NCBI GenBank assembly: GCA_017470505.1 | Contig: JAFUYO010000024.1 | Coordinates: 1 to 64,000 of the forward strand | Reading direction: 5' to 3' | Source of the DNA: Butyrivibrio sp. | GTDB taxonomy: Bacteria > Bacillota > Clostridia > Lachnospirales > Lachnospiraceae | DNA length: 64,000 bases | Part shown: piece after piece, positions 4,698 through 42,601 of the stretch | Position numbering within the stretch: position 1 is the stretch's first letter | How the letters are laid out: every line of letters begins with the position of its first letter | Position numbers and translations under genes: made by a program | The notes under the pieces: model-generated | What the model was told of the DNA's origin: nothing | Seen by the model: the letters and a program-made list of their open reading frames with translations, nothing else | The model's database searches: none

Positions 4698-6989
4698 CTA
4701 CCTCCCAACAATCTTGTTTGGCATCACATGGATGCTTGTAAAGCAGTGCTTGAACTCTCCAAAGGTATATTCGTCAATTCTGTCCTCGTACGCGCTCTGA
4801 ACCTTAACTGTGCGCTGGCCGTTTTTGGGCGTACCTTCGCCGCAGAAAACAAACTCATGGCGCTTTAAGAGATGTACAGGGAACTTTACAGTATCATTCA
4901 ACTTGTCATAGAAGCCTGTACTGCCACCTTCTTCTGCAGTATTGCATATAACCGCATAGCCCATTTTAAAATATGTAAGTGCCTTTGCAAGCGCAATGTC
5001 ACCCTGATTGTCGATCAGAGTTTTGGAGAGAGTTTTTGTTTCAACCCTGTTTGATGATGCAACGCTTCTCTCCGTATAGTTCTCGGGATCTTTATTTCTC
5101 GTTGAGATGGTTTCAAAGCGCCCTTCTCCGAACAACAGCCAGCTTGCAAGCTGCTCAGATCCCCACGCCATTTCATCGGCGTTTAAGGATTCATCCGCTA
5201 TTTCATATTTGGAGTAGTCGTGTCCTCCCTTTTCCTTATCATCCCAGAAGCGATATCTGGGAGCAGGCTCGTTTCTCTTTTTACCGATTAAAACAAGGCA
5301 TGCCTTTTCTACGCACTGTATCCACACAGGACGTTCATCTCCGCTGGTATACTTTCCTCCCAGTTTGGTTTTCTGGACACGAATCTTCTGTTTACGCCCT
5401 GCCTCGTCAAATAATGTTACAATCGCCCATTTCGGATCCCTGGGGTCTTCTTTTATAAGATGCTTTGTAATATAATCCGGATTATATCTTGCAAGTGACT
5501 GTATAGCCGCAATGATATAGCAGTTAAAGCTGCTCCTGTTTTCACGCACATCCTTCAGATTAATGTTTCCGTTTTCTCCAAAGAGCGGTTCATATGTAGG
5601 CTCTCCGTAGTCCTTCGTAAATTTCTTATCCGGTACTTCAATCACGTAATCAGGCTCTTTTTCGTCAAGCTTTTCATTCTTTTTTGACTGTATCTGTCCG
5701 TCGAAAAGCCCCATGTAATAGTCAACACGCGCTTCTGCAGTCTTATGACAGCTATTAAGTACCTCCGCAATAGACAGATTTGTATCAGTGTTAACCTTTT
5801 CATCGTACTGCAGCTCGTCCGGCTCCATGATTTCAAGCGGTTTCTTCATGTTTTCTTTAAGGAGCCTTGTTGTCACCTTTTTGCGCTCTGTCTTTTGCCT
5901 GATTTCATTTTCAGGATGAGCTGCTGCATTTACAGGTTTCTTCTTCTGTTCAAACTTCAAAATATTCTCATCATTAAGAATATTCCCTATATTCAGCTTT
6001 CTGTTGCGGCTAAGCTCATCATACTTCTCTTCAAATCTGGCGTATGCATTGAGCTTATTGGACGCCTGATCAACGCCTTTCATATATTCGTCGCGGATTT
6101 TGGTAAAGCGCTGATTTTTTTGATTCTGAGCAAAAACCAAAAGTGCCTTGAGTTTTTTGATCTCAGAAATTTTTTCAGAAACTGACTTAAGAGTAAGACA
6201 CAGAGCCAGATTCTCCAGTACCTTGGCATCATCGTATATGTCGGCATCGACCATGGCCAAATTGAAATCAGCACTAATCTCAGCGTCCTTGACCTTTTCC
6301 TGGTTTTCCCTGTAAGCTATAGCAACTTCAGATGACAGATCTGTGTACTTAGACAGAGCCCCTGTCAGAACATCCTTATTCAGCTCCTCGGATAACAGCC
6401 TCCTCATGGCTCTTATCCTGGCGCTCTCAGCATGCTCATTTATCATGTTCTGATCATCTGTCTCCTTGCTTTGCATGTAACTTGAAGCAATGACTGAAAG
6501 CTTTCTGATATAATTATCTTCCTGATCTTCGTTTATACCACTCAGCTCATTTTTATATGTCCTGTAAGTGGAAAAATAGTCCTTCTTCTCATCGGGTATA
6601 TCATGTCCATCAACTCTGACATCCCACTCAGCTATGCAGTTATCATCGTCAAAAATCTCGGAAAGAAATGACTTCTCACCGTCATTCTCAAACGCTTCTT
6701 TTGCAGAGAGATCATGATCCTTTTTGTTTTCATACTCTTTCAGTGCATTTGCAACTGTCCTGATGACTGACGAAAGTCTGTCTCTCTTGTCCGAATCAAG
6801 AAGGTCTGAAAAGTAGAAGTTGATAAACCCTCCTGCAACGGCAGCATCATTAAACGCACTGTCGGCAAAGTCTGTCAGCGCCTTTCGTATCTTCTTCGGG
6901 ATACGTTCAAAATCCCTGTCTTTAAAGAGCTTGCCTGCCTCAATATTTCTTATGAGCGTTTCTTCGTCCAAAAGCTTTGCTGTCTGCAA
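4698..6989 (-). CDS. K3 downstream part: kinase-fold C-terminus plus calpain-like cysteine protease domain
   Basis: This 763-residue frame starts at TTG, with a poor ribosome binding site, inside the previous gene (40-nt overlap). Residues about 55-88 (FYFSDLL to ALKEYE) align without gaps to the C-terminal helices of the kinase-like proteins at 36837-38699 and 40580-42601. A long charged helical region follows to about 470. The end resembles peptidase family C2 (calpain): FNCYIIAAIQSLA with candidate nucleophile C490, PVWIQCVEKA, a candidate catalytic histidine H711 in KRHEF, and a calpain-like end YTFGEFKHCFTSIHV. The expected Asn motif (NPWG) reads QSAY. I infer that this is the second half of one protein broken by a frameshift. 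The calpain assignment comes from motif order only. Confidence 0.65.
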   Translation of the reverse strand: MQTAKLLDEETLIRNIEAGKLFKDRDFERIPKKIRKALTDFADSAFNDAAVAGGFINFYFSDLLDSDKRDRLSSVIRTVANALKEYENKKDHDLSAKEAFENDGEKSFLSEIFDDDNCIAEWDVRVDGHDIPDEKKDYFSTYRTYKNELSGINEDQEDNYIRKLSVIASSYMQSKETDDQNMINEHAESARIRAMRRLLSEELNKDVLTGALSKYTDLSSEVAIAYRENQEKVKDAEISADFNLAMVDADIYDDAKVLENLALCLTLKSVSEKISEIKKLKALLVFAQNQKNQRFTKIRDEYMKGVDQASNKLNAYARFEEKYDELSRNRKLNIGNILNDENILKFEQKKKPVNAAAHPENEIRQKTERKKVTTRLLKENMKKPLEIMEPDELQYDEKVNTDTNLSIAEVLNSCHKTAEARVDYYMGLFDGQIQSKKNEKLDEKEPDYVIEVPDKKFTKDYGEPTYEPLFGENGNINLKDVRENRSSFNCYIIAAIQSLARYNPDYITKHLIKEDPRDPKWAIVTLFDEAGRKQKIRVQKTKLGGKYTSGDERPVWIQCVEKACLVLIGKKRNEPAPRYRFWDDKEKGGHDYSKYEIADESLNADEMAWGSEQLASWLLFGEGRFETISTRNKDPENYTERSVASSNRVETKTLSKTLIDNQGDIALAKALTYFKMGYAVICNTAEEGGSTGFYDKLNDTVKFPVHLLKRHEFVFCGEGTPKNGQRTVKVQSAYEDRIDEYTFGEFKHCFTSIHVMPNKIVGR

Positions 6990-8029
6990 AAGGTGCGCCC
7001 CGTGACGATATATGTGTCCTGACCGTCAAGATTCTCACAGCGGTACCTCAGAACTATGCTATCCTTCAGATCTGCTTCGCTCCCTCCGAGAAGGAAGTTC
7101 ATCAGCTTTATCGAAGAGAGATCACTCATGGCCTCAGCAGAAAAGTGCATGGTCTTACCCTTCAGATCTCTGTAAGATGAGAAGCTATAGCCGCTCTCAA
7201 AAGCGCCGCCCTTAAACTTCTCAGAGCGAGTCCCAAGATATATCTTTCCGTCCTTATCCCTGACACCTGCAATTCTGGTATTTGTACACAGATTGGAGCA
7301 TCCAAGCGCTGAAAAGAGCCTGCTTGCCGCAACCCTCGTCTTGGACCTCTCTTCAAGAAGTGCGGGTTCATCTTCGAGGTCGTAGATAGCGCTCTCGCCT
7401 ATCTCACCATTATTTTCAAGCACTTCTTCCCTGGTCTTTGACTCCTCGACAGTTGTCCTGTACCCGAGGAGATTGCCAAGGACGATTCCTTCACACCTGA
7501 CTCCGGCAAAGAAATTTATCACTGATGAGTCAGTAAATTCGCCTCTCTCTTTCACCGCCATATAGAGAATGCTGCGAACGAGTCCGAGTCTTTCCTTACC
7601 TCTTGTCTTGCGGTAAAAGCGGTCTTTTTCCCTGATATAGTTCTGGCAGGCCGAGATCAGATCATTATAGCAGGCTGCAAGATACTGCATAGCCTCCTCT
7701 AAATGCTCTTTGTTCTGAGTATCCACAGAGATGCAGAGCTGCTTGTTCACCTCATTGAGAGCGACCTTCACCTCTGCCATGAGCGTAGAGTCACCTCTGC
7801 CAAACTTGTCGTTCATGAACTCATCTGTTTTAGCCATATGCTCTGCAAAGGCATTCTTGTATGAGCTCTGAAATGCAGCGGCCTCCTCATCTACGACATT
7901 TCCTGTCTTTCCCCAGGCCATGGCTCTGACATCAGATCTCTGATTCTGATTGATAACATCGGAATAATCAAGTTTTCCGAACCCGTTTAATTTATCTTTG
8001 GTTATAAATTTATTCTCGTTGTCACTCAT
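6950..8029 (-). CDS. K3 upstream part: helical domain plus catalytically degenerate kinase-like domain
   Basis: This is a 359-residue product, ATG 8029. Residues about 80-165 form a helical domain matching that of K1 and K2 (ACQNYIREK, then GKERLGLV). Residues about 225-345 match their kinase-like core: RVAASRLFSALG corresponds to NVASSRLASILG of K2, and FSAEAMSDLSSIKLMNFLLG to YSPEAIRSLANLQIFDILAG. Where K1/K2 have GQVDRH, this protein has GGSEAD, and no IDND motif follows, so it is a pseudokinase by sequence. The product ends TGRTFCRQQ in a different frame from the continuation; one extra T in the TTTT run near 6988-6991 would join it to the next frame as TGRTFLQTAKLL. It has its own promoter just after leuD. 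Confidence 0.7.
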   Translation of the reverse strand: MSDNENKFITKDKLNGFGKLDYSDVINQNQRSDVRAMAWGKTGNVVDEEAAAFQSSYKNAFAEHMAKTDEFMNDKFGRGDSTLMAEVKVALNEVNKQLCISVDTQNKEHLEEAMQYLAACYNDLISACQNYIREKDRFYRKTRGKERLGLVRSILYMAVKERGEFTDSSVINFFAGVRCEGIVLGNLLGYRTTVEESKTREEVLENNGEIGESAIYDLEDEPALLEERSKTRVAASRLFSALGCSNLCTNTRIAGVRDKDGKIYLGTRSEKFKGGAFESGYSFSSYRDLKGKTMHFSAEAMSDLSSIKLMNFLLGGSEADLKDSIVLRYRCENLDGQDTYIVTGRTFCRQQSFWTKKRS

Positions 8030-36836: not shown

Positions 36837-38699
36837 TTACAGACACATTTTGTCAAGTCTTGTCCACTTAAGCGACTCGCTGACATCTTCGTTATTCTTG
36901 TTTGCTCTCAGATCCCTGACAGCTACATCCCAATCTGCATCGCTTCTTAAGATCTTCTTCTGGTACTTCTTGCCTGAACCGGCCTGCTTCTTCTCATAGT
37001 TTAATCTGTTGCTGAGTACCTTCTGCACTCCCTTAAATCTGTTTGCAAGGAAGCTTATCTCACTCTCTGTCATGACGTCAGCGAGATTATATGTAAAGAG
37101 CTGTACGTCAAACTCTGAGATCTTCTGGGCAAACTGATAGTCGACATACGGAAGCATAAGCTCGCCGTCTTTTTCAATGCTCTTGGCGCTTGACTGTGTC
37201 TGATTGCCCTTTTCGAGTATCTCCTCATAAGTCAGGTTTCCAAGGCATAAATCGTTGTCAATTCCCTTTACGCTTCCAAGGAGGTTTCCATCCAGAATGG
37301 AGGTGTTGAAGTTTTCATCATGTCTGTCAACCTGTCCCAGAATAACATCCAGTATCTGAAGACTTAAAAGACCTTTTATTGTGCTTCCTGAATAATTGAC
37401 TTTACGGAGATTGTTCTTATTCATCAGCTGCTTAATATTTCCGCCGCCGGCATCATCCATGATGATACCCTTAACCTTTTTGCCATTAACCTCAATCTCA
37501 CTCATATGTGCGCCGACGATAAGGCTTTCAACTCCAAGAAGCTTGGCAATCCTGTAAGCTGCCACATTCCTCTTTGACAAACTTGCATCTTCCGGTAATT
37601 TTGCGGTCTCGACAGCTTTTCTCTTAAGATACAGACGAGCACCTTCTTTTAATATCCTGTTGAAATATGCCTTATCTTCCTCGGATTTTACTTCCATAAG
37701 AGGTGCGCCGGGACTTATAAGCATATTCTCCTGAAGCCATCCGACCAGGTCCTCCTGCTTGGAATTTGCGATAATTGAATCAGTTAAGAGATCATTTGTA
37801 AACACCTCAAATCTGATAGAACGTAGAACTTCGTCTTTAAAAAACGCATGTTCTTCCTCTTCATCAGTCTTTGCTTTGGCACGTTCTTCGGCAACTGAAT
37901 TCTGTTCGCTATTAAAGTAATTAGCGAATAGATGTTCAGCATCATCCTCTTCCTTCTTGAAGTACTTCTTCTCGCCGTTCTTCTCAATCACATAGAGCTC
38001 AGATGTATTACCGCCCTCAACTTTTTTAATTGAAACGCCGTCCTGGCCATCTACAAACTTATCAGTTCTCACATCAGCGAGCACATCGAGCCATGTCTTG
38101 CCTGCAAAATCCTGCCTGTAACCCGCCTCAATCTCAGCGACAACTCCTGAGAAGCGCGCGGACTCCTCCTTGAGCTGCTCGTAAAAGCCAAGTACCATTG
38201 CCCTTCTTACTTTACCCTCATCAGACTTGGGATTGGTACGGCTTTTGAGGTACTTATCGCACTTGTCGATAGCATCGAGGAAAGCTGTCTGTATGGTCTC
38301 TGCCTTATTGACGTCTACAGGCTCCTTAAAGAAATCATCAAGCTTTTTCATGGAATCAAGAACAGGTTTCATGTAAGAGCGTGACGGGTTGTAGCTTGCG
38401 TTCTGCTCTCTGCCCTTCTTGTCAACAAAGCTGTAGCCCTTGTTTCTTATGATCGATTCCTTGCCCTGGAACAGTGAAACAGCGCGCCGGGGAAGATTGC
38501 CCTCGACATTTTTGTTCTTCTGCTCAAGGTATGAGAGCTTCTGCTCCTCATTTGCAAAAATCGGTGGCTCCTCAACGGGGATATTCACCACGTTGACCTC
38601 GGGCTCCTTTATCATCTCACTTTTTTTCGTAGTGTCTATTACAGTCTTATCCTGTTTCTTTTTCCACTTGTATTCTCTACCATCTGCATTTTCCGGCAT
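36837..38699 (-). CDS. K1: PI3/4-kinase-like protein with helical N-terminal domain
   Basis: The 620-residue product has no signal peptide. A charged N-terminal segment comes first, then a helical domain (about 105-200, YMKPVLDSMKKLDDFF, then DEGKVRRAMV), a beta segment with candidate ATP lysine near 248 (SELYVIEKNGEKKYFKK), a variable insert, SKRNVAAYRIAKLLGV (about 375-390), the catalytic-loop-like GQVDRHDENF (about 455-464) and KGIDNDLCLG (about 478-487). This order (xAAYRLxxLLG, DRHxxN, IDN) is that of PI4K-II/actin-fragmin-kinase-like folds. K2 is a full-length paralogue; K3 lacks the motifs. ATG 38699 is chosen: GGAGG at 38708-38712 is 8 bases upstream. Substrate unknown. Confidence 0.7.
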   Translation of the reverse strand: MPENADGREYKWKKKQDKTVIDTTKKSEMIKEPEVNVVNIPVEEPPIFANEEQKLSYLEQKNKNVEGNLPRRAVSLFQGKESIIRNKGYSFVDKKGREQNASYNPSRSYMKPVLDSMKKLDDFFKEPVDVNKAETIQTAFLDAIDKCDKYLKSRTNPKSDEGKVRRAMVLGFYEQLKEESARFSGVVAEIEAGYRQDFAGKTWLDVLADVRTDKFVDGQDGVSIKKVEGGNTSELYVIEKNGEKKYFKKEEDDAEHLFANYFNSEQNSVAEERAKAKTDEEEEHAFFKDEVLRSIRFEVFTNDLLTDSIIANSKQEDLVGWLQENMLISPGAPLMEVKSEEDKAYFNRILKEGARLYLKRKAVETAKLPEDASLSKRNVAAYRIAKLLGVESLIVGAHMSEIEVNGKKVKGIIMDDAGGGNIKQLMNKNNLRKVNYSGSTIKGLLSLQILDVILGQVDRHDENFNTSILDGNLLGSVKGIDNDLCLGNLTYEEILEKGNQTQSSAKSIEKDGELMLPYVDYQFAQKISEFDVQLFTYNLADVMTESEISFLANRFKGVQKVLSNRLNYEKKQAGSGKKYQKKILRSDADWDVAVRDLRANKNNEDVSESLKWTRLDKMCL

Positions 38700-38775
38700 A
38701 ACCAAAGCCTCCATTATTCGTTTAATATCTGTCAGGATCAGGCCCCGGCAGATATCATTATTTTGTTTACAGTTG

Positions 38776-38804
38776 TTTATACGATATATTGTATTCTGTG
38801 GCAG
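38776..38804 (-). promoter_or_regulatory. Promoter candidate of K1
   Basis: On the minus strand CTGCCA (38799-38804) and TATAAA (38776-38781) are 17 bases apart, with TCG before the -10. An alternative is TTGGAA (38812-38817) with TACAAT (38788-38793), spacing 18. A hairpin with ATATCTG/CAGATAT arms (38725-38755) sits in the leader. Confidence 0.4.
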
Positions 38805-38884
38805 ATAATTTTTCCAATACTCTTGAAAAAAAAATTTGAATTAACATATACTATAATAAGTAGAAATCAGAAAGGCATAGTGAT

Positions 38885-39724
38885 ATGGATATTTACACCA
38901 TTACAAAAGAACTTGCACCGACGCTCAAAAACCACTGCCCGGACGCTGTGCTATCCAATGTCGGGCAGCAGGGCTTTTATACACTTGCATCATTCGATGA
39001 TGAGGATTTTCTGACGGGGGTTATACAGTTTCGCTTAGGCAACAGCACTGTGCGCTCGGAATTTGCCGCGATCATCACCTACATCTTCGTTCAGGACATA
39101 TTCAGAGAGCGCGGAACCGCTATCTCCCTGCTTGGTGAAGTTATAGATATTGCAAGGGCTTCTGACGTCCCCCGGATAGAAGTTGAGCTTTTACCTGAAG
39201 CTCAGGGGCAGATGGAGCTTAAGGATTTCTTTTTAAAAAGACATTTTACATTTAACGACGAATACTGCCTGTACACCGGCTCAGCCGCCGATATGCTGAG
39301 GGCCCCTTCGCTTACGCAGAGCGTGAAGACAGCTGTCTCAACTATTGAGATACTATCTCTCAGGGACTTCAACTAGATTCTGGGGAGCCTTAAAGAGAAC
39401 TTATCTCCCGCTGTCAGGGACATTAACCTCTACGAGAAGAAGGTCAGCACCTACTTCAGGTCAGGCAGCTCCTGCGGCATGCTCCTTTTGAGAAAAAGAG
39501 GCGCATCAGCCTTAGAGGTCGTCTTCTATGCGTCGACTGAGTCAGCAGACAGAGCATCTATGCTTGATCTGATCCTGCTCAGTGCCAGAAAAATACGCGA
39601 TGATTATCCGGATAACACTGTTATCCGCATCGTCACCGCTGATAAGAGAAACAAGAATATAATAGAAAAGCTCTGCCCCGGGGTTACTCCTCACAGTTTA
39701 AGCCGCGGGATTTATGAGATATAG
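38885..39724 (+). pseudogene. Double-GNAT acetyltransferase, interrupted by an in-frame TAG
   Basis: The frame opens with ATG 38885 (AAAGG 9 bases upstream), runs 163 codons to TAG at 39374-39376 and then continues open in the same frame to a TAG at 39722-39724. The two parts together align end to end with the intact neighbour at 39739: DRDFELMLDAL there corresponds to LRDFN-stop-ILGSL here, so the stop replaces a leucine codon (TTG to TAG would do). The first half has GNAT features: IFVQDIFRERGTAISLL with an RxxGxA motif for acetyl-CoA, and a C-terminal LKDFFLKRHFTF. The truncated first half could still be a working one-domain acetyltransferase. Confidence 0.75.
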
Positions 39725-39738
39725 GAAGGTACTCCAAC

Positions 39739-40593
39739 ATGGCAATCTACAATATAACAGGCGAAGCAGCTTCGCAGCTTGGGAGCCACTGCCCTGACAA
39801 TGTGATCTCAAACGCAGGCCGTCCCGGCTACTTCACCCTCGTATCATCAGATGACGAGGGCTTTTTGACAGGGGTTCTTCAGTTTTATATAGGTCACAGC
39901 TTGGTGCGCTCAGAAATTGCAGCCGTGATAACCCACATATTTGTTCAGGACGTATTCAGGAACCATATCATCGGAAGCAATCTCATCGATGAGCTCGTTG
40001 ATATAGCGCAAAAATCGGAGATTTACAGGGTCGAGATTGATCTTCTTCCTGAAATTCCCGAACAGAATGCGCTCAAGAGCTTTTTTTCAAAAGAGCGCTT
40101 TGCTTTTTATGACGGGTATCGTCTGTATATGGGGGCTCTTAACCGCTTTACGCACTCTTCAGTCTTCTCCGACGTAAAGGATACCGACATCCACACCATT
40201 GACTCCCTCTCTGACAGGGATTTCGAGCTGATGCTGGATGCTCTTATGCCGAATTTATCCCCCACTGTCAGAAATATTGATCTCTACGAAAAAAATGTGA
40301 GCACTTATTTTACCACCGGTGGGTCCTGCGGGATGCTCCTTGTCAGGAAAGTGTCCGACTTCACCCTTGAACCGGTTTTCTATGCAGCGACAGAAACTGC
40401 CGACAACCAGATGCGCCTTGACCTCATCCTCGTCTGCGCACAAAAGATGAGGGAGAACTATCCGGGTAATACGGTAATCCGCATTGTCACAGACGATTCG
40501 AGGAACAAGAAGATCATCAAAAAGCTCTGCCCCGAGATAGTTCCCTACGAATTAGAGCGTGGATACTACACTATCACAACTACCTCCGATTAG
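39739..40593 (+). CDS. Double-GNAT N-acetyltransferase-like protein
   Basis: The 284-residue product is a tandem copy of the preceding gene, starting 14 bases after it with AGGAAGG upstream. It has a first GNAT-like half (about 1-135) and a second half (about 155-284: LSPTVRNIDLYEKNVSTYF, then NTVIRIVTDDSRNKKIIKKLCP) that looks like another acetyltransferase fold. The acetyl-CoA loop of the first half reads RNHIIGSNL instead of RERGTAISL in the broken copy, so motif A is eroded here. Its last 14 bases overlap the 3' end of the convergent K2 gene. The role is unknown; it lies between two kinase-like genes. Confidence 0.65.
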   Translation: MAIYNITGEAASQLGSHCPDNVISNAGRPGYFTLVSSDDEGFLTGVLQFYIGHSLVRSEIAAVITHIFVQDVFRNHIIGSNLIDELVDIAQKSEIYRVEIDLLPEIPEQNALKSFFSKERFAFYDGYRLYMGALNRFTHSSVFSDVKDTDIHTIDSLSDRDFELMLDALMPNLSPTVRNIDLYEKNVSTYFTTGGSCGMLLVRKVSDFTLEPVFYAATETADNQMRLDLILVCAQKMRENYPGNTVIRIVTDDSRNKKIIKKLCPEIVPYELERGYYTITTTSD

Positions 40594-42601
40594 CAAAAAT
40601 TGCATCCGGATGGTAGTAGGAATATGCCTCCATATAACTGCGTTTATAGGTTCTGGTATCATCAATTATCGCCTTTTCTGCACCGTTCCATTCGTCGCCC
40701 TTAAGGAACCTCTTTTTCTGCTTCGCATCATCCTTCTGCTCCCAGAGCTTTTTGATAGCTCTCTTAACCCCCTTAAGTCTGTCGGAAAGAGCCTCTCTCT
40801 CCTCGTTCGATAGAATATCCGCCATCTGATAGCTTAGCTGTTCAGCATCCAGCTGCATGATATGCTGTGCCATATCATAGTCAATAAAGGGGAGCTTGAC
40901 ATCCCCGTGTGATTCAAAGTTTTTTATCCTGTTGTAACCCTGCTGTCCTGTAGCGGTGATTTCATTGTACCTGAGCTTTCCAAAGCACATATCGTTATCT
41001 ATTCCGCAAATTGTGTTTATCACATACATATTTTTCTTTTGATCGAATTCATATGTGACATGATAATTGTTCCTGTGCCTGTCTACCTGCCCTGCAAGGA
41101 TATCAAAGATCTGTAGGTTTGCAAGGCTCCTTATTGCCTCAGGAGAATACATCACCTTTACGTTTTCTTTTTCTGCCTTGGAAAAGAGCTGTGCGCAGCT
41201 TATTCCCTTGGCTTCATCCATGATAACGCCTGACATCTTAGTGCCGTTTATCTGTATTTCCGTCATCCTGCTCTGAGTCACGAGGTCTTTCACCCCGAGG
41301 ATGGAGGCGAGTCTGCTGGACGCAACATTTCTCTTGGAGAGCTCACTCTTTTCTTCAACCTTAACGTTCTTTACTGCAATTGCATTTGAGAGATAGTTCT
41401 TGGAAATGGTCTTAAGCGTATCATGCAGGTAGAATAACTCACACTCTTTAAATTCCTTCATTTTTGAAGGATCTTTTGCACTTTCTTTAAGCAGGTTCAA
41501 CCCCTCTTTAAGCCACTTGTTAAGAGATGCCTCAATTGCTGACCCGTCACCTGACAGTTCAAGAGCGTAAAAAACCTTGCTAAGATCAGAACTCGCCTGA
41601 GCGATATCCGGATTATCCCTTAACAGTTTATCGATTGTATGATGAATATAAGACGAGTCTTTGTCGGTATATTTTGAGTCCAGTTCTTCTTTAAGAAGAT
41701 CCAAAAGTTCAGCTCTTCTCAAGTTTCTTGTTTTGATTCTCTCAATTTCTTCCTGAGATTCCCCGGTAGCAGTCAGATCCGGTATTTCCTTCTCAAGTCG
41801 CTTTTTCTCAGCGTCAATACTTGAAGAATATGTTCCCTCAGGGACAGACTCATGCTTCTTAAAGAACTTCTTCTCTTTGGTCTTGGTATCCTCAATTATG
41901 AAAAGCTCCGAGGTCGCCGCGCCGCCCTTGGTGAGCTTGAAGTCGCCGTTCTTATCGTCATAGACGGTTGTCCTGACTTTTCTAAGTACATCGCTCCACC
42001 TGGTTTCTTCATTAGTCTCATACTCACCGATCTTAATCTTCTCAATTGTCTCGGCAAAGCGCATTGACTCCCAGGTCAGCTGCTTGTGGAAGTCCTGAAC
42101 CATCTGCTTTCTGACCTTGCCCTCATCGGTGTAGGGGTTCTTGCGGTTTTCAAGGTAATTCCAGCAGGCAGAGCTGGCATCGAGAAAGGCCTTCTCGATA
42201 GCTGCCGAGTCCTTTAAGTCTATTTTTTTATCAAACAAATCGTCAAGCTTTTTTAACGAGTCAAGCACGGGCTTCATATACTTGGATGAAGGAACATCCC
42301 TTTTGCCCTGTATGGTCCTGCCCTTTTTGTCAATATAGGTGTAGCTCGCAGTCCTGACAAGGTCCTGCTTCTGACTGAAGGTCTCAAAGGACGCGGAGAT
42401 ATTTTCCTCCACCTCTTTGTGCTTCATTGTAAGGAGGGCATCTTCTTCATTCTGATCAAATTCAATGAGAGGCTCTTCACCTGCAATGTTTTTATCAGCA
42501 TTTATGTGATTTTTCAGAAGTTCACTCTGCTTTTGGGTATCGATCTCGGTGGTCTTGTTCTTTTCTTTAAACTGATACTGTTTTGGATCAAAATCTGCCA
42601 T
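40580..42601 (-). CDS. K2: PI3/4-kinase-like protein, paralogue of K1
   Basis: The 673-residue product has the same architecture as K1: N-terminal segment YQFKEKNKTTEIDT, helical domain (about 105-185, YMKPVLDSLKKLDDLF, then DEGKVRKQMV), candidate ATP lysine near 245-249 (KEKKFFKK), a longer insert (about 255-415), SKRNVASSRLASILGV (about 422-437), GQVDRHRNNY (about 504-513) and GIDNDMCFG (about 533-541). C-terminal helices LSYQMADILSNEEREALSDR follow. ATG 42601 is preferred over 42607: GGAGG (42609-42613) lies 7 bases upstream, the same arrangement as in K1. No signal peptide or membrane helix. It is likely an active phosphotransferase, or an AMPylase-like user of ATP; this is inference from motifs. 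Confidence 0.7.
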   Translation of the reverse strand: MADFDPKQYQFKEKNKTTEIDTQKQSELLKNHINADKNIAGEEPLIEFDQNEEDALLTMKHKEVEENISASFETFSQKQDLVRTASYTYIDKKGRTIQGKRDVPSSKYMKPVLDSLKKLDDLFDKKIDLKDSAAIEKAFLDASSACWNYLENRKNPYTDEGKVRKQMVQDFHKQLTWESMRFAETIEKIKIGEYETNEETRWSDVLRKVRTTVYDDKNGDFKLTKGGAATSELFIIEDTKTKEKKFFKKHESVPEGTYSSSIDAEKKRLEKEIPDLTATGESQEEIERIKTRNLRRAELLDLLKEELDSKYTDKDSSYIHHTIDKLLRDNPDIAQASSDLSKVFYALELSGDGSAIEASLNKWLKEGLNLLKESAKDPSKMKEFKECELFYLHDTLKTISKNYLSNAIAVKNVKVEEKSELSKRNVASSRLASILGVKDLVTQSRMTEIQINGTKMSGVIMDEAKGISCAQLFSKAEKENVKVMYSPEAIRSLANLQIFDILAGQVDRHRNNYHVTYEFDQKKNMYVINTICGIDNDMCFGKLRYNEITATGQQGYNRIKNFESHGDVKLPFIDYDMAQHIMQLDAEQLSYQMADILSNEEREALSDRLKGVKRAIKKLWEQKDDAKQKKRFLKGDEWNGAEKAIIDDTRTYKRSYMEAYSYYHPDAIFANRR

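What the first reader, a model, noticed from the sequence alone, without database searches (positions are those of the whole stretch)
36837..42601. Paralogous PI3/4-kinase-like proteins as a new bacterial kinase-like family
K1 and K2 share a helical N-terminal domain, a lysine-bearing beta segment, an xVAxxRLAxxLGV helix, DRHxxN and GIDND. This order matches PI4K-II/actin-fragmin-type lipid and protein kinases rather than Hanks-type kinases. Both lack signal peptides and have long insertions. Phosphotransferase, AMPylation or glutamylation are all possible for this fold.
Basis: partly seen in the sequence, partly recalled or inferred. Interest (0 to 1): 0.85.

Follow-up and report, generated by a model that had tools for sequence, protein, structure and literature searches.

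The report
Kinase-like cargo of bacterial injection machines
Two neighbouring genes of a gut bacterium encode unusual kinase-like proteins from a large, uncatalogued family whose genes often travel with a phage-tail-like injection machine and with a partner gene, so they are probably proteins that the bacterium injects into other cells.

Summary
No structure could be predicted. The genome carries a complete-looking extracellular contractile injection system, eCIS. Across 79 genomes of the genus the kinase family occurs in 24 of 27 with the eCIS marker Pvc16_N and 5 of 52 without. In 11 of 77 loci fetched by the kinase alone, its gene lies within 60 bp of an eCIS-type ATPase gene. Some members end in calpain-like or ADP-ribosyltransferase domains; all five protease fusions scored have lost kinase catalytic residues. 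The two genes between K1 and K2 belong to a partner family, acetyltransferase-fold proteins within 300 bp of 65 of 126 family ORFs. Best reading: K1 and K2 are eCIS cargo with a phosphotransferase-fold warhead and a dedicated partner. Against it: 9 of 15 family-positive genera lack the marker, one branch is mostly eCIS-free, K1/K2 lie outside their own eCIS locus, and delivery, activity and target are untested. I found no description of this family in the papers searched.

The parts
36837..38699 (-). K1: kinase-like protein, 620 aa from the ATG with the better ribosome site (ORF extends to 38714)
40580..42601 (-). K2: paralogue of K1, 673 aa from the second ATG (ORF extends to 42607)
37326..37328 (-). 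K1 putative catalytic Asp of DRHxxN (residue 463 of the 625-aa ORF)
   Evidence: motif at 37311-37337; family DRH aligned with Fam20C DRH
37251..37265 (-). K1 GIDND motif (putative metal-binding position)
37947..37970 (-). K1 lysine-bearing segment KKYFKKEE
41066..41092 (-). K2 GQVDRHRNN, putative catalytic loop
40991..41005 (-). K2 GIDND motif
41849..41872 (-). K2 lysine-bearing segment KKFFKKHE
38885..39376 (+). N1: GNAT-like partner gene, 5' part; ends at an in-frame TAG, after which the same frame stays open to 39724
39377..39724 (+). N1: downstream remainder of the interrupted frame (62% identical to N2 165-279)
39739..40593 (+). N2: uninterrupted GNAT-like partner, 284 aa, convergent with K2 and overlapping its 3' end by 14 bp
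6950..8029 (-). further weak, truncated relative of the family (helical part and start of the kinase-like part)

Best explanation
K1 and K2 are cytosolic proteins made to be loaded into, and injected by, the cell's extracellular contractile injection system (a phage-tail-like particle). Each has a polar N-terminal tail, a probably helical domain and a C-terminal PI4K-II/Fam20-type kinase fold that acts as the warhead by transferring phosphate from ATP to a lipid or protein of the target cell. The AAA+ ATPase of the eCIS would load them, and the neighbouring GNAT-like protein (N2, and the interrupted N1) would be a cargo-specific partner, either an adaptor or a modifying enzyme. Shown here: the motifs, the family, the genetic linkage of the family to eCIS and to the GNAT-like gene, the fusion of the same module to other toxin-type domains, and the loss of kinase residues in the protease fusions scored. 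Inferred: the fold, loading, injection, kinase activity, the partner's role, and the target (rumen protists, fungi or other bacteria).
For: The own genome has an eCIS locus with sheath, tube, Pvc16_N, DUF4280 PAAR-like, baseplate J, gp25 and AAA+WHD genes. Genomes of the genus: kinase family in 29 of 79, Pvc16_N in 27 of 79, both in 24; Fisher p 2e-12, not corrected for kinship. About one genome per genus of the taxonomic family (299 genomes): 6 of 15 kinase-positive genomes have Pvc16_N against 18 of 284 negative ones, p 0.0004, or 0.002 without the own genome. Of 77 loci fetched by the kinase alone, 12 carry clear eCIS-type genes (7 with baseplate-cluster genes, 5 with ATPases only), and in 11 the kinase frame lies within 60 bp of an eCIS-type ATPase frame, in L172 on the opposite strand. 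The own genome has such a pair too. Other family genes lie about 1-22 kb from eCIS genes (L095-L102). Fused domains: Peptidase_C2 in four (E 2e-9 to 2e-18) and ADPrib_exo_Tox in one (E 9e-12) of the seven long members scanned. Calpain-fused members with lost catalytic residues 5 of 5, other members 4 of 24, p 0.001, sequences not independent. GNAT-like gene within 300 bp of 65 of 126 family ORFs against 48 of 294 other large ORFs in the same loci. The GNAT-like family is in 26 of 27 Pvc16-positive and 5 of 52 Pvc16-negative genomes. Published precedent: Pvc15 ATPase loads effectors by N-terminal signals (PMC11495950, abstract).
Against: K1 and K2 lie on contig C52, not in the eCIS locus on C39, so for them the link is by family, not by operon. 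Five of 29 family-positive genomes of the genus and 9 of 15 family-positive genera have no Pvc16_N. A separate branch of 21 tree members, 16 of them from Pvc16-negative genomes, has a GNAT-like neighbour in only 1 of 18 scorable cases, so the family is not confined to eCIS. 65 of the 77 kinase loci show no clear eCIS gene, though many are short contigs. No common N-terminal loading motif could be shown. At the lysine position 89 of 123 aligned rows have Lys, 19 Arg and 15 something else, and I identified no alpha-C glutamate. No fold model was possible.
Confidence: 0.6

Rival explanations
1. K1 and K2 are intracellular kinases (for example of a regulatory or toxin-antitoxin kind such as HipA) that happen to lie in genomes with eCIS; the eCIS-adjacent members are later recruits.
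For: A branch of the family is mostly from genomes without Pvc16_N and mostly without the GNAT-like neighbour. K1 and K2 have no signal peptide and lie outside the eCIS locus.
Against: K1 and K2 fall outside the mostly eCIS-free branch, in the part of the tree where 63 of 89 scorable members have a GNAT-like neighbour. Fusion to protease and ADP-ribosyltransferase domains and the large, variable number of paralogues fit cargo better than a housekeeping regulator. HipA_C matches only 1 of 74 members (E 0.019). I did not search specifically for an antitoxin.
Confidence: 0.22
2. The kinase-like module is mainly a non-catalytic scaffold or docking domain of the delivery system, and the enzymes are the domains fused to it; stand-alone members such as K1/K2 would be vestigial or structural.
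For: Catalytic residues are lost in all 5 calpain fusions scored, in one ADP-ribosyltransferase fusion (L047) and in three members next to an AAA+ ATPase (L041, L042, L054).
Against: 20 of 29 scorable members of the set that was not motif-seeded, including K1 and K2, keep both aspartates and the Asn. Other members next to an ATPase keep them, e.g. L045, L151, L167, L174. Stand-alone relatives are under purifying selection. One ADP-ribosyltransferase fusion, L172, keeps the residues.
Confidence: 0.12
3. K1/K2 form a self-contained pair with the GNAT-like gene in which the latter is an immunity or antidote protein, as in interbacterial toxin systems, with or without eCIS.
For: Tight gene pairing with 65 of 126 family ORFs, 58 of them on the same strand. 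49 of 92 partner proteins keep an acetyl-CoA motif, so they could modify and silence the kinase.
Against: The partner also accompanies other large ORFs and calpain fusions, which is unusual for a specific immunity protein. 43 of 92 lack the motif or the segment. N1 is interrupted while K1 is intact.
Confidence: 0.15

Closest known systems
Phosphatidylinositol 4-kinase type II / PI3_PI4_kinase (Pfam PF00454)
   Same: Order of motifs (FK..E segment, helix, DRxxxN, IDN; the PI4K-II motifs partly recalled); L158 scores above the Pfam cut-off; 19 of 74 members match at E 0.05.
   Different: K1 and K2 score below the cut-off (16.1 and 19.3 against 27.1 bits); long N-terminal domain; the lysine is not universal.
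Fam20 secreted kinases (Fam20C, Fam20B, Pfam PF06702)
   Same: Best PDB profile hits; DRH and DN positions and the following helix align; 19 of 74 members match the Pfam model.
   Different: Invariant Asn after DRH that the aligned Fam20 chains lack; no signal peptide; few cysteines (3 and 5).
Actin-fragmin kinase (PDB 1cja)
   Different: The match is very weak and was not listed with the larger profile.
eCIS effectors loaded by Pvc15-type ATPase (Photorhabdus PVC)
   Same: Genes of relatives in or next to eCIS operons and AAA+ ATPases; modular toxin domains.
   Different: In two eCIS toxin surveys the word kinase occurs only for regulators or in reference titles (PMC8213781, PMC11297309; passages; supplements not seen); extra GNAT-like partner gene; no shared leader found.
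Legionella atypical effector kinases (PMC9758233)
   Same: Effector kinases, some of which cluster with Fam20/CotH, LepB among them (passages).
   Different: Different bacteria and (recalled) a different delivery system; no link to this family seen in those passages.

Membership tests
PI3/PI4 kinase (PF00454) | score above Pfam's curated cut-off | tested here: not met
   K1 16.1 and K2 19.3 bits against 27.1; relative L158 passes with 33.3
PI3/PI4 kinase-like superfamily | DRxxxN and DN residues conserved | tested here: met
   K1, K2 intact; 20 of 29 scorable members of the set not seeded by motif
PI3/PI4 kinase-like superfamily | ATP-binding lysine and partner acidic residue | tested here: inconclusive
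   Lys present in K1/K2; Lys in 89, Arg in 19, other in 15 of 123 aligned rows; no alpha-C Glu identified
PI3/PI4 kinase-like superfamily | kinase fold | not testable with these tools
   structure prediction switched off
Hanks-type protein kinase | HRDxxxxN and DFG motifs, Pkinase Pfam match | tested here: not met
   no such Pfam match for K1/K2 at E 1; motifs are DRHxxN and IDND; the Hanks motifs are recalled
Fam20C | sequence match to PF06702 | tested here: inconclusive
   19 of 74 members match at E 0.05, best 2.7e-6; K1 and K2 do not
Fam20C | secretory signal and disulfides | tested here: not met
   no hydrophobic N-terminus; 3 and 5 Cys
HipA toxin kinase | HipA_C match | tested here: not met
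   none for K1/K2 at E 1; 1 of 74 members, E 0.019
HipA toxin kinase | HipB-like antitoxin partner | not tested
   the nearest neighbours are GNAT-like; no antitoxin search was made
eCIS effector | gene in or next to eCIS operon | tested here: inconclusive
   true for some relatives, not for K1/K2 themselves
eCIS effector | co-occurrence with eCIS across genomes | tested here: met
   24 of 27 Pvc16+ against 5 of 52 Pvc16- genomes of the genus; weaker across genera, 6 of 24 against 9 of 275
eCIS effector | N-terminal loading signal | tested here: inconclusive
   N-termini polar, rich in N/Q, but no shared motif above control
eCIS effector | found in particles and delivered | not testable with these tools
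   needs experiment
GNAT acetyltransferase (partner genes) | sequence match to the GNAT fold | tested here: met
   PDB 2eui E 6e-8; Acetyltransf_1 in 10 of 26 members, N2 above cut-off
GNAT acetyltransferase (partner genes) | acetyl-CoA motif [RQ]xxGx[GA] (recalled) | tested here: inconclusive
   49 of 92 family members have it; N2 does not

The most novel reading that the evidence does not exclude
Gut Clostridia use a previously undescribed eCIS cargo platform: a kinase-fold module that is either the warhead itself or, with its active site lost, the carrier for other warheads (calpain-like protease, ADP-ribosyltransferase), each cargo being handled by its own acetyltransferase-fold partner that acts as a loading adaptor or activator.
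Probability: 0.4. Interest if true: 0.85.

Novelty: new variant of a known kind. Interest (0 to 1): 0.72.

Why it matters
My searches found no paper that holds both 'contractile injection system' and 'Butyrivibrio', and those with Lachnospiraceae or rumen were not about such systems as far as seen. A widespread effector family with a kinase fold would point to a new biochemical activity and to a new way in which gut and rumen bacteria act on protists, fungi or rivals. The partner gene gives a simple marker for finding further cargo in uncultured genomes. Two relatives come from records whose titles name strains and do not say MAG: Butyrivibrio sp. FCS014 (L164) and Pseudobutyrivibrio sp. MD2005 (L152, where the gene adjoins eCIS genes), so the idea can be tested directly if those strains are available.

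Tried and rejected
Prophage or orphan tail as the source of the sheath gene: judged unlikely, because Pvc16_N, DUF4280 and the AAA+WHD ATPase mark an eCIS; I did not search for capsid or terminase genes.

A common N-terminal leader looked plausible by eye. A simple pattern found it in 4 of 30 and 13 of 84 N-termini, no clear gain over other windows of the same proteins (0-4 and 5-16) or shuffles (means 3.1 and 7.8), so I drop it.

GNAT-like partner as a dead enzyme: a first impression, not upheld, since 49 of 92 keep the acetyl-CoA motif.

Defence system: no PADLOC match for the 4 proteins scanned. NCBIfam: none for K1/K2 at E 1. Single-sequence PDB searches gave nothing relevant. Viral home: 1 relative in IMG/VR out of 87 pattern matches. 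A first genome-contig scan with K2 alone found no relative.

Rows dropped before counts; one copy per identical sequence, and copies that also occur among loci L114+ were kept there, so some intact close relatives are not among its 29; 2 of its 31 rows gave no data; two further calpain-profile hits (L109, and L189 5604-8222) were below the family threshold used and were not scored, although L109 lies at a weak family match. I left out matches to the PP2C phosphatase and STAS genes (not eCIS-specific) and one weak ATPase match (L142); the script's own count was 20 of 78, the 78th locus being the viral one; the 126 ORFs include fragments and contig-edge copies; 123 of 144 aligned sequences kept for the tree, so members of L208, L209, L219 and L220 (Pvc16-negative genomes) are not in it. 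The supports of 91 (the 21-member split) and 87 (K1+K2) come from the quick tree only; FastTree gives 0.97 for the split.
Full report
Observation. K1 and K2 are minus-strand genes of 620 and 673 residues from their better-placed start codons, 38-41% identical over two long stretches. Neither has a hydrophobic N-terminus. In Pfam the only relevant match is PI3_PI4_kinase, below the cut-off; NCBIfam has nothing for them.

Family. A profile of 18 members finds the family in 29 of 79 genomes of the window's genus, with up to eight matches per genome. A scan of named genomes gave 305 pattern matches, of which 217 encode relatives; the best 80 were kept, in 77 loci. By their record titles they come from Butyrivibrio, Pseudobutyrivibrio and many uncultured Lachnospiraceae of ruminants, and from Anaerotignum, Agathobaculum, Oscillospiraceae and Pseudoflavonifractor, among others. 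That the window's genus is Butyrivibrio is inferred from contigs of equal length in both collections (for example 212692 and 147043 bases). Across 74 aligned sequences, R426, D502, Q507, D509, R510, N514, D537, D539, G543 and R610 of K2 are invariant. The scan was seeded with the DRxxxN and IDND motifs, so this set overstates their conservation. In the set that was not seeded this way, 20 of 29 scorable members keep them.

Kinase relationship. 19 of 74 members match PI3_PI4_kinase and 19 match Fam20C at E 0.05. L158 passes the Pfam cut-off for PI3_PI4_kinase with 33.3 bits; of the other nine members scanned in that call none passes it. The PDB profile search lists Fam20C, Fam20B, PI4K2B and actin-fragmin kinase at weak E-values of 0.03-0.65. 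With the larger profile Fam20C stays first (E 0.06), Trp repressor chains come before PI4K2B, and actin-fragmin kinase is not listed. The alignments put the family's DRH and IDN aspartates on those of Fam20C. The lysine position holds Lys in 89, Arg in 19 and other residues in 15 of 123 rows, and the helix carries an invariant R426 where I could not identify the usual glutamate. The fold could not be modelled. So a kinase-type fold is likely and the chemistry is open.

An injection machine in the same genome. Contig C39 carries sheath, tube, Pvc16_N, DUF4280 PAAR-like, baseplate J, gp25 and an AAA+ ATPase with a winged-helix match. This is the gene set of an extracellular contractile injection system. 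A second ATPase of this type stands directly beside a degenerate family member (L012/L054).

Linkage. Family and Pvc16_N occur together in 24 of 79 genomes of the genus, the family alone in 5, Pvc16_N alone in 3 and neither in 47 (Fisher p 2e-12, not corrected for kinship). With about one genome per genus of the taxonomic family the figures are 6, 9, 18 and 266 of 299 (p 0.0004, or 0.002 without the own genome). Among the 77 loci fetched by the kinase alone, 12 carry clear eCIS-type genes. Seven have baseplate-cluster genes (L141, L151, L152, L166, L172, L179 and L184; in L179 only the p358 gene of that cluster), and five have the ATPases only (L135, L149, L161, L167, L174). In 11 of the 12 (all but L135) the kinase frame lies within 60 bp of an eCIS-type ATPase frame, in L172 on the opposite strand. 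In other genomes of the genus family genes lie about 1-22 kb from eCIS genes (L095, L096, L098/L099, L100/L101, L102). K1 and K2 themselves lie on another contig, so for them the argument is by family.

A polymorphic family. Of seven long members scanned, four carry a Peptidase_C2 domain and one an ADPrib_exo_Tox domain. A home-made profile adds L108 as a fifth calpain-type fusion with the kinase module, and L047 ends in a domain related to the ADP-ribosyltransferase of L172. All 5 calpain fusions scored have lost the catalytic residues, against 4 of 24 other members (p 0.001, sequences related). Of the two ADP-ribosyltransferase fusions one has lost them (L047) and one has not (L172). The plain reading is that the kinase fold is the active part in stand-alone members and a carrier, its active site dispensable, where another active domain has been added.

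A partner gene. The two plus-strand genes between K1 and K2 are GNAT-like (N1 below, N2 above the Pfam cut-off) and 49% identical over 162 residues. N1 is interrupted by an in-frame TAG at 39374-39376, with the same frame open up to 39724. Relatives of N2 lie within 300 bp of 65 of 126 family ORFs, 61 of them within 100 bp and 58 on the same strand, against 48 of 294 other large ORFs of the same loci. The partner family is found in 31 of 79 genomes of the genus, 26 of the 27 with Pvc16_N and 5 of the 52 without, two of the five being weak (2e-7), and in many copies (14 matches in the own genome). In the own genome copies also stand within 1 kb of other very large ORFs of 887, 975, 1851, 2129 and 2155 residues. 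That suggests a marker of cargo in general. The N-terminal half matches the GNAT fold well. 49 of 92 members keep the acetyl-CoA motif, while N2 lacks it. An adaptor, an activating acyltransferase (as HlyC is for RTX toxins, recalled) and an immunity protein all remain possible.

A branch mostly without eCIS. A tree of 123 members separates 21 of them (support 91 in the quick tree), 16 of these from genomes without Pvc16_N; only 1 of 18 scorable ones has a GNAT-like neighbour, against 63 of 89 in the rest. K1 and K2 are sisters (support 87) in the larger part. The family is therefore wider than the eCIS link, and that is the strongest argument against a blanket effector claim.

Literature. I searched for contractile injection systems with kinase, Butyrivibrio, Lachnospiraceae, rumen, kinase domain and cargo, GNAT/chaperone, Clostridia and calpain and for novel kinase-like families. 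I saw no description of this family. Several of these searches returned more papers than were listed or opened (26, 448 and 27). Of PMC8213781 I read matching passages and section 11. Of PMC11297309, PMC9758233, PMC12923769, PMC10598620 and PMC10266427 I read matching passages only, and of PMC11495950 the abstract and outline. All others I saw only in search listings. Supplements were not available. Preprints and most subscription papers are not in the library.

Verdict. The finding is real and more interesting than stated. It is best read as an eCIS-linked, polymorphic effector family with a PI4K-II/Fam20-like kinase module and a GNAT-like partner. Family and linkage are shown. Fold, delivery, enzymatic activity and target are inferred.

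Noticed in passing
window 4698-8029, minus strand: Two overlapping ORFs in different frames: a weak family member (6950-8029) followed by a large ORF (4698-6989) whose C-terminal part is weakly calpain-like. Looks like a broken cargo gene.
   Followed up: partly
window 39374-39376: In-frame TAG interrupts N1 while the flanking frame stays similar to N2; either decay or an assembly error.
   Followed up: partly
L011 4528-14159 (contig C52, about 5-14 kb beyond the window): Cluster of large ORFs: a family member interrupted by one in-frame TGA, two GNAT-like ORFs and an 878-residue protein with a long hydrophobic region.
   Followed up: partly
L193 9131-12058, L194 5637-8300, L200 7123-10026, L203 10518-13613: Large proteins next to GNAT-like genes share by eye a similar C-terminal end, perhaps a second cargo family.
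   Followed up: no
L207 924-17041: Tandem array of five ORFs of 786-1332 residues, one a family member, in a genome without a Pvc16_N match.
   Followed up: no
L041, L042, L054: Three of the four scored members that lost catalytic residues without a calpain fusion stand next to an AAA+ ATPase; perhaps a pseudokinase adaptor. Others next to such an ATPase keep the residues, e.g. L045, L151.
   Followed up: partly
L204, L205, L054 4423-6222: PP2C-type phosphatase and STAS-like genes recur near GNAT-like genes and in eCIS loci; possible regulation of the machine.
   Followed up: no
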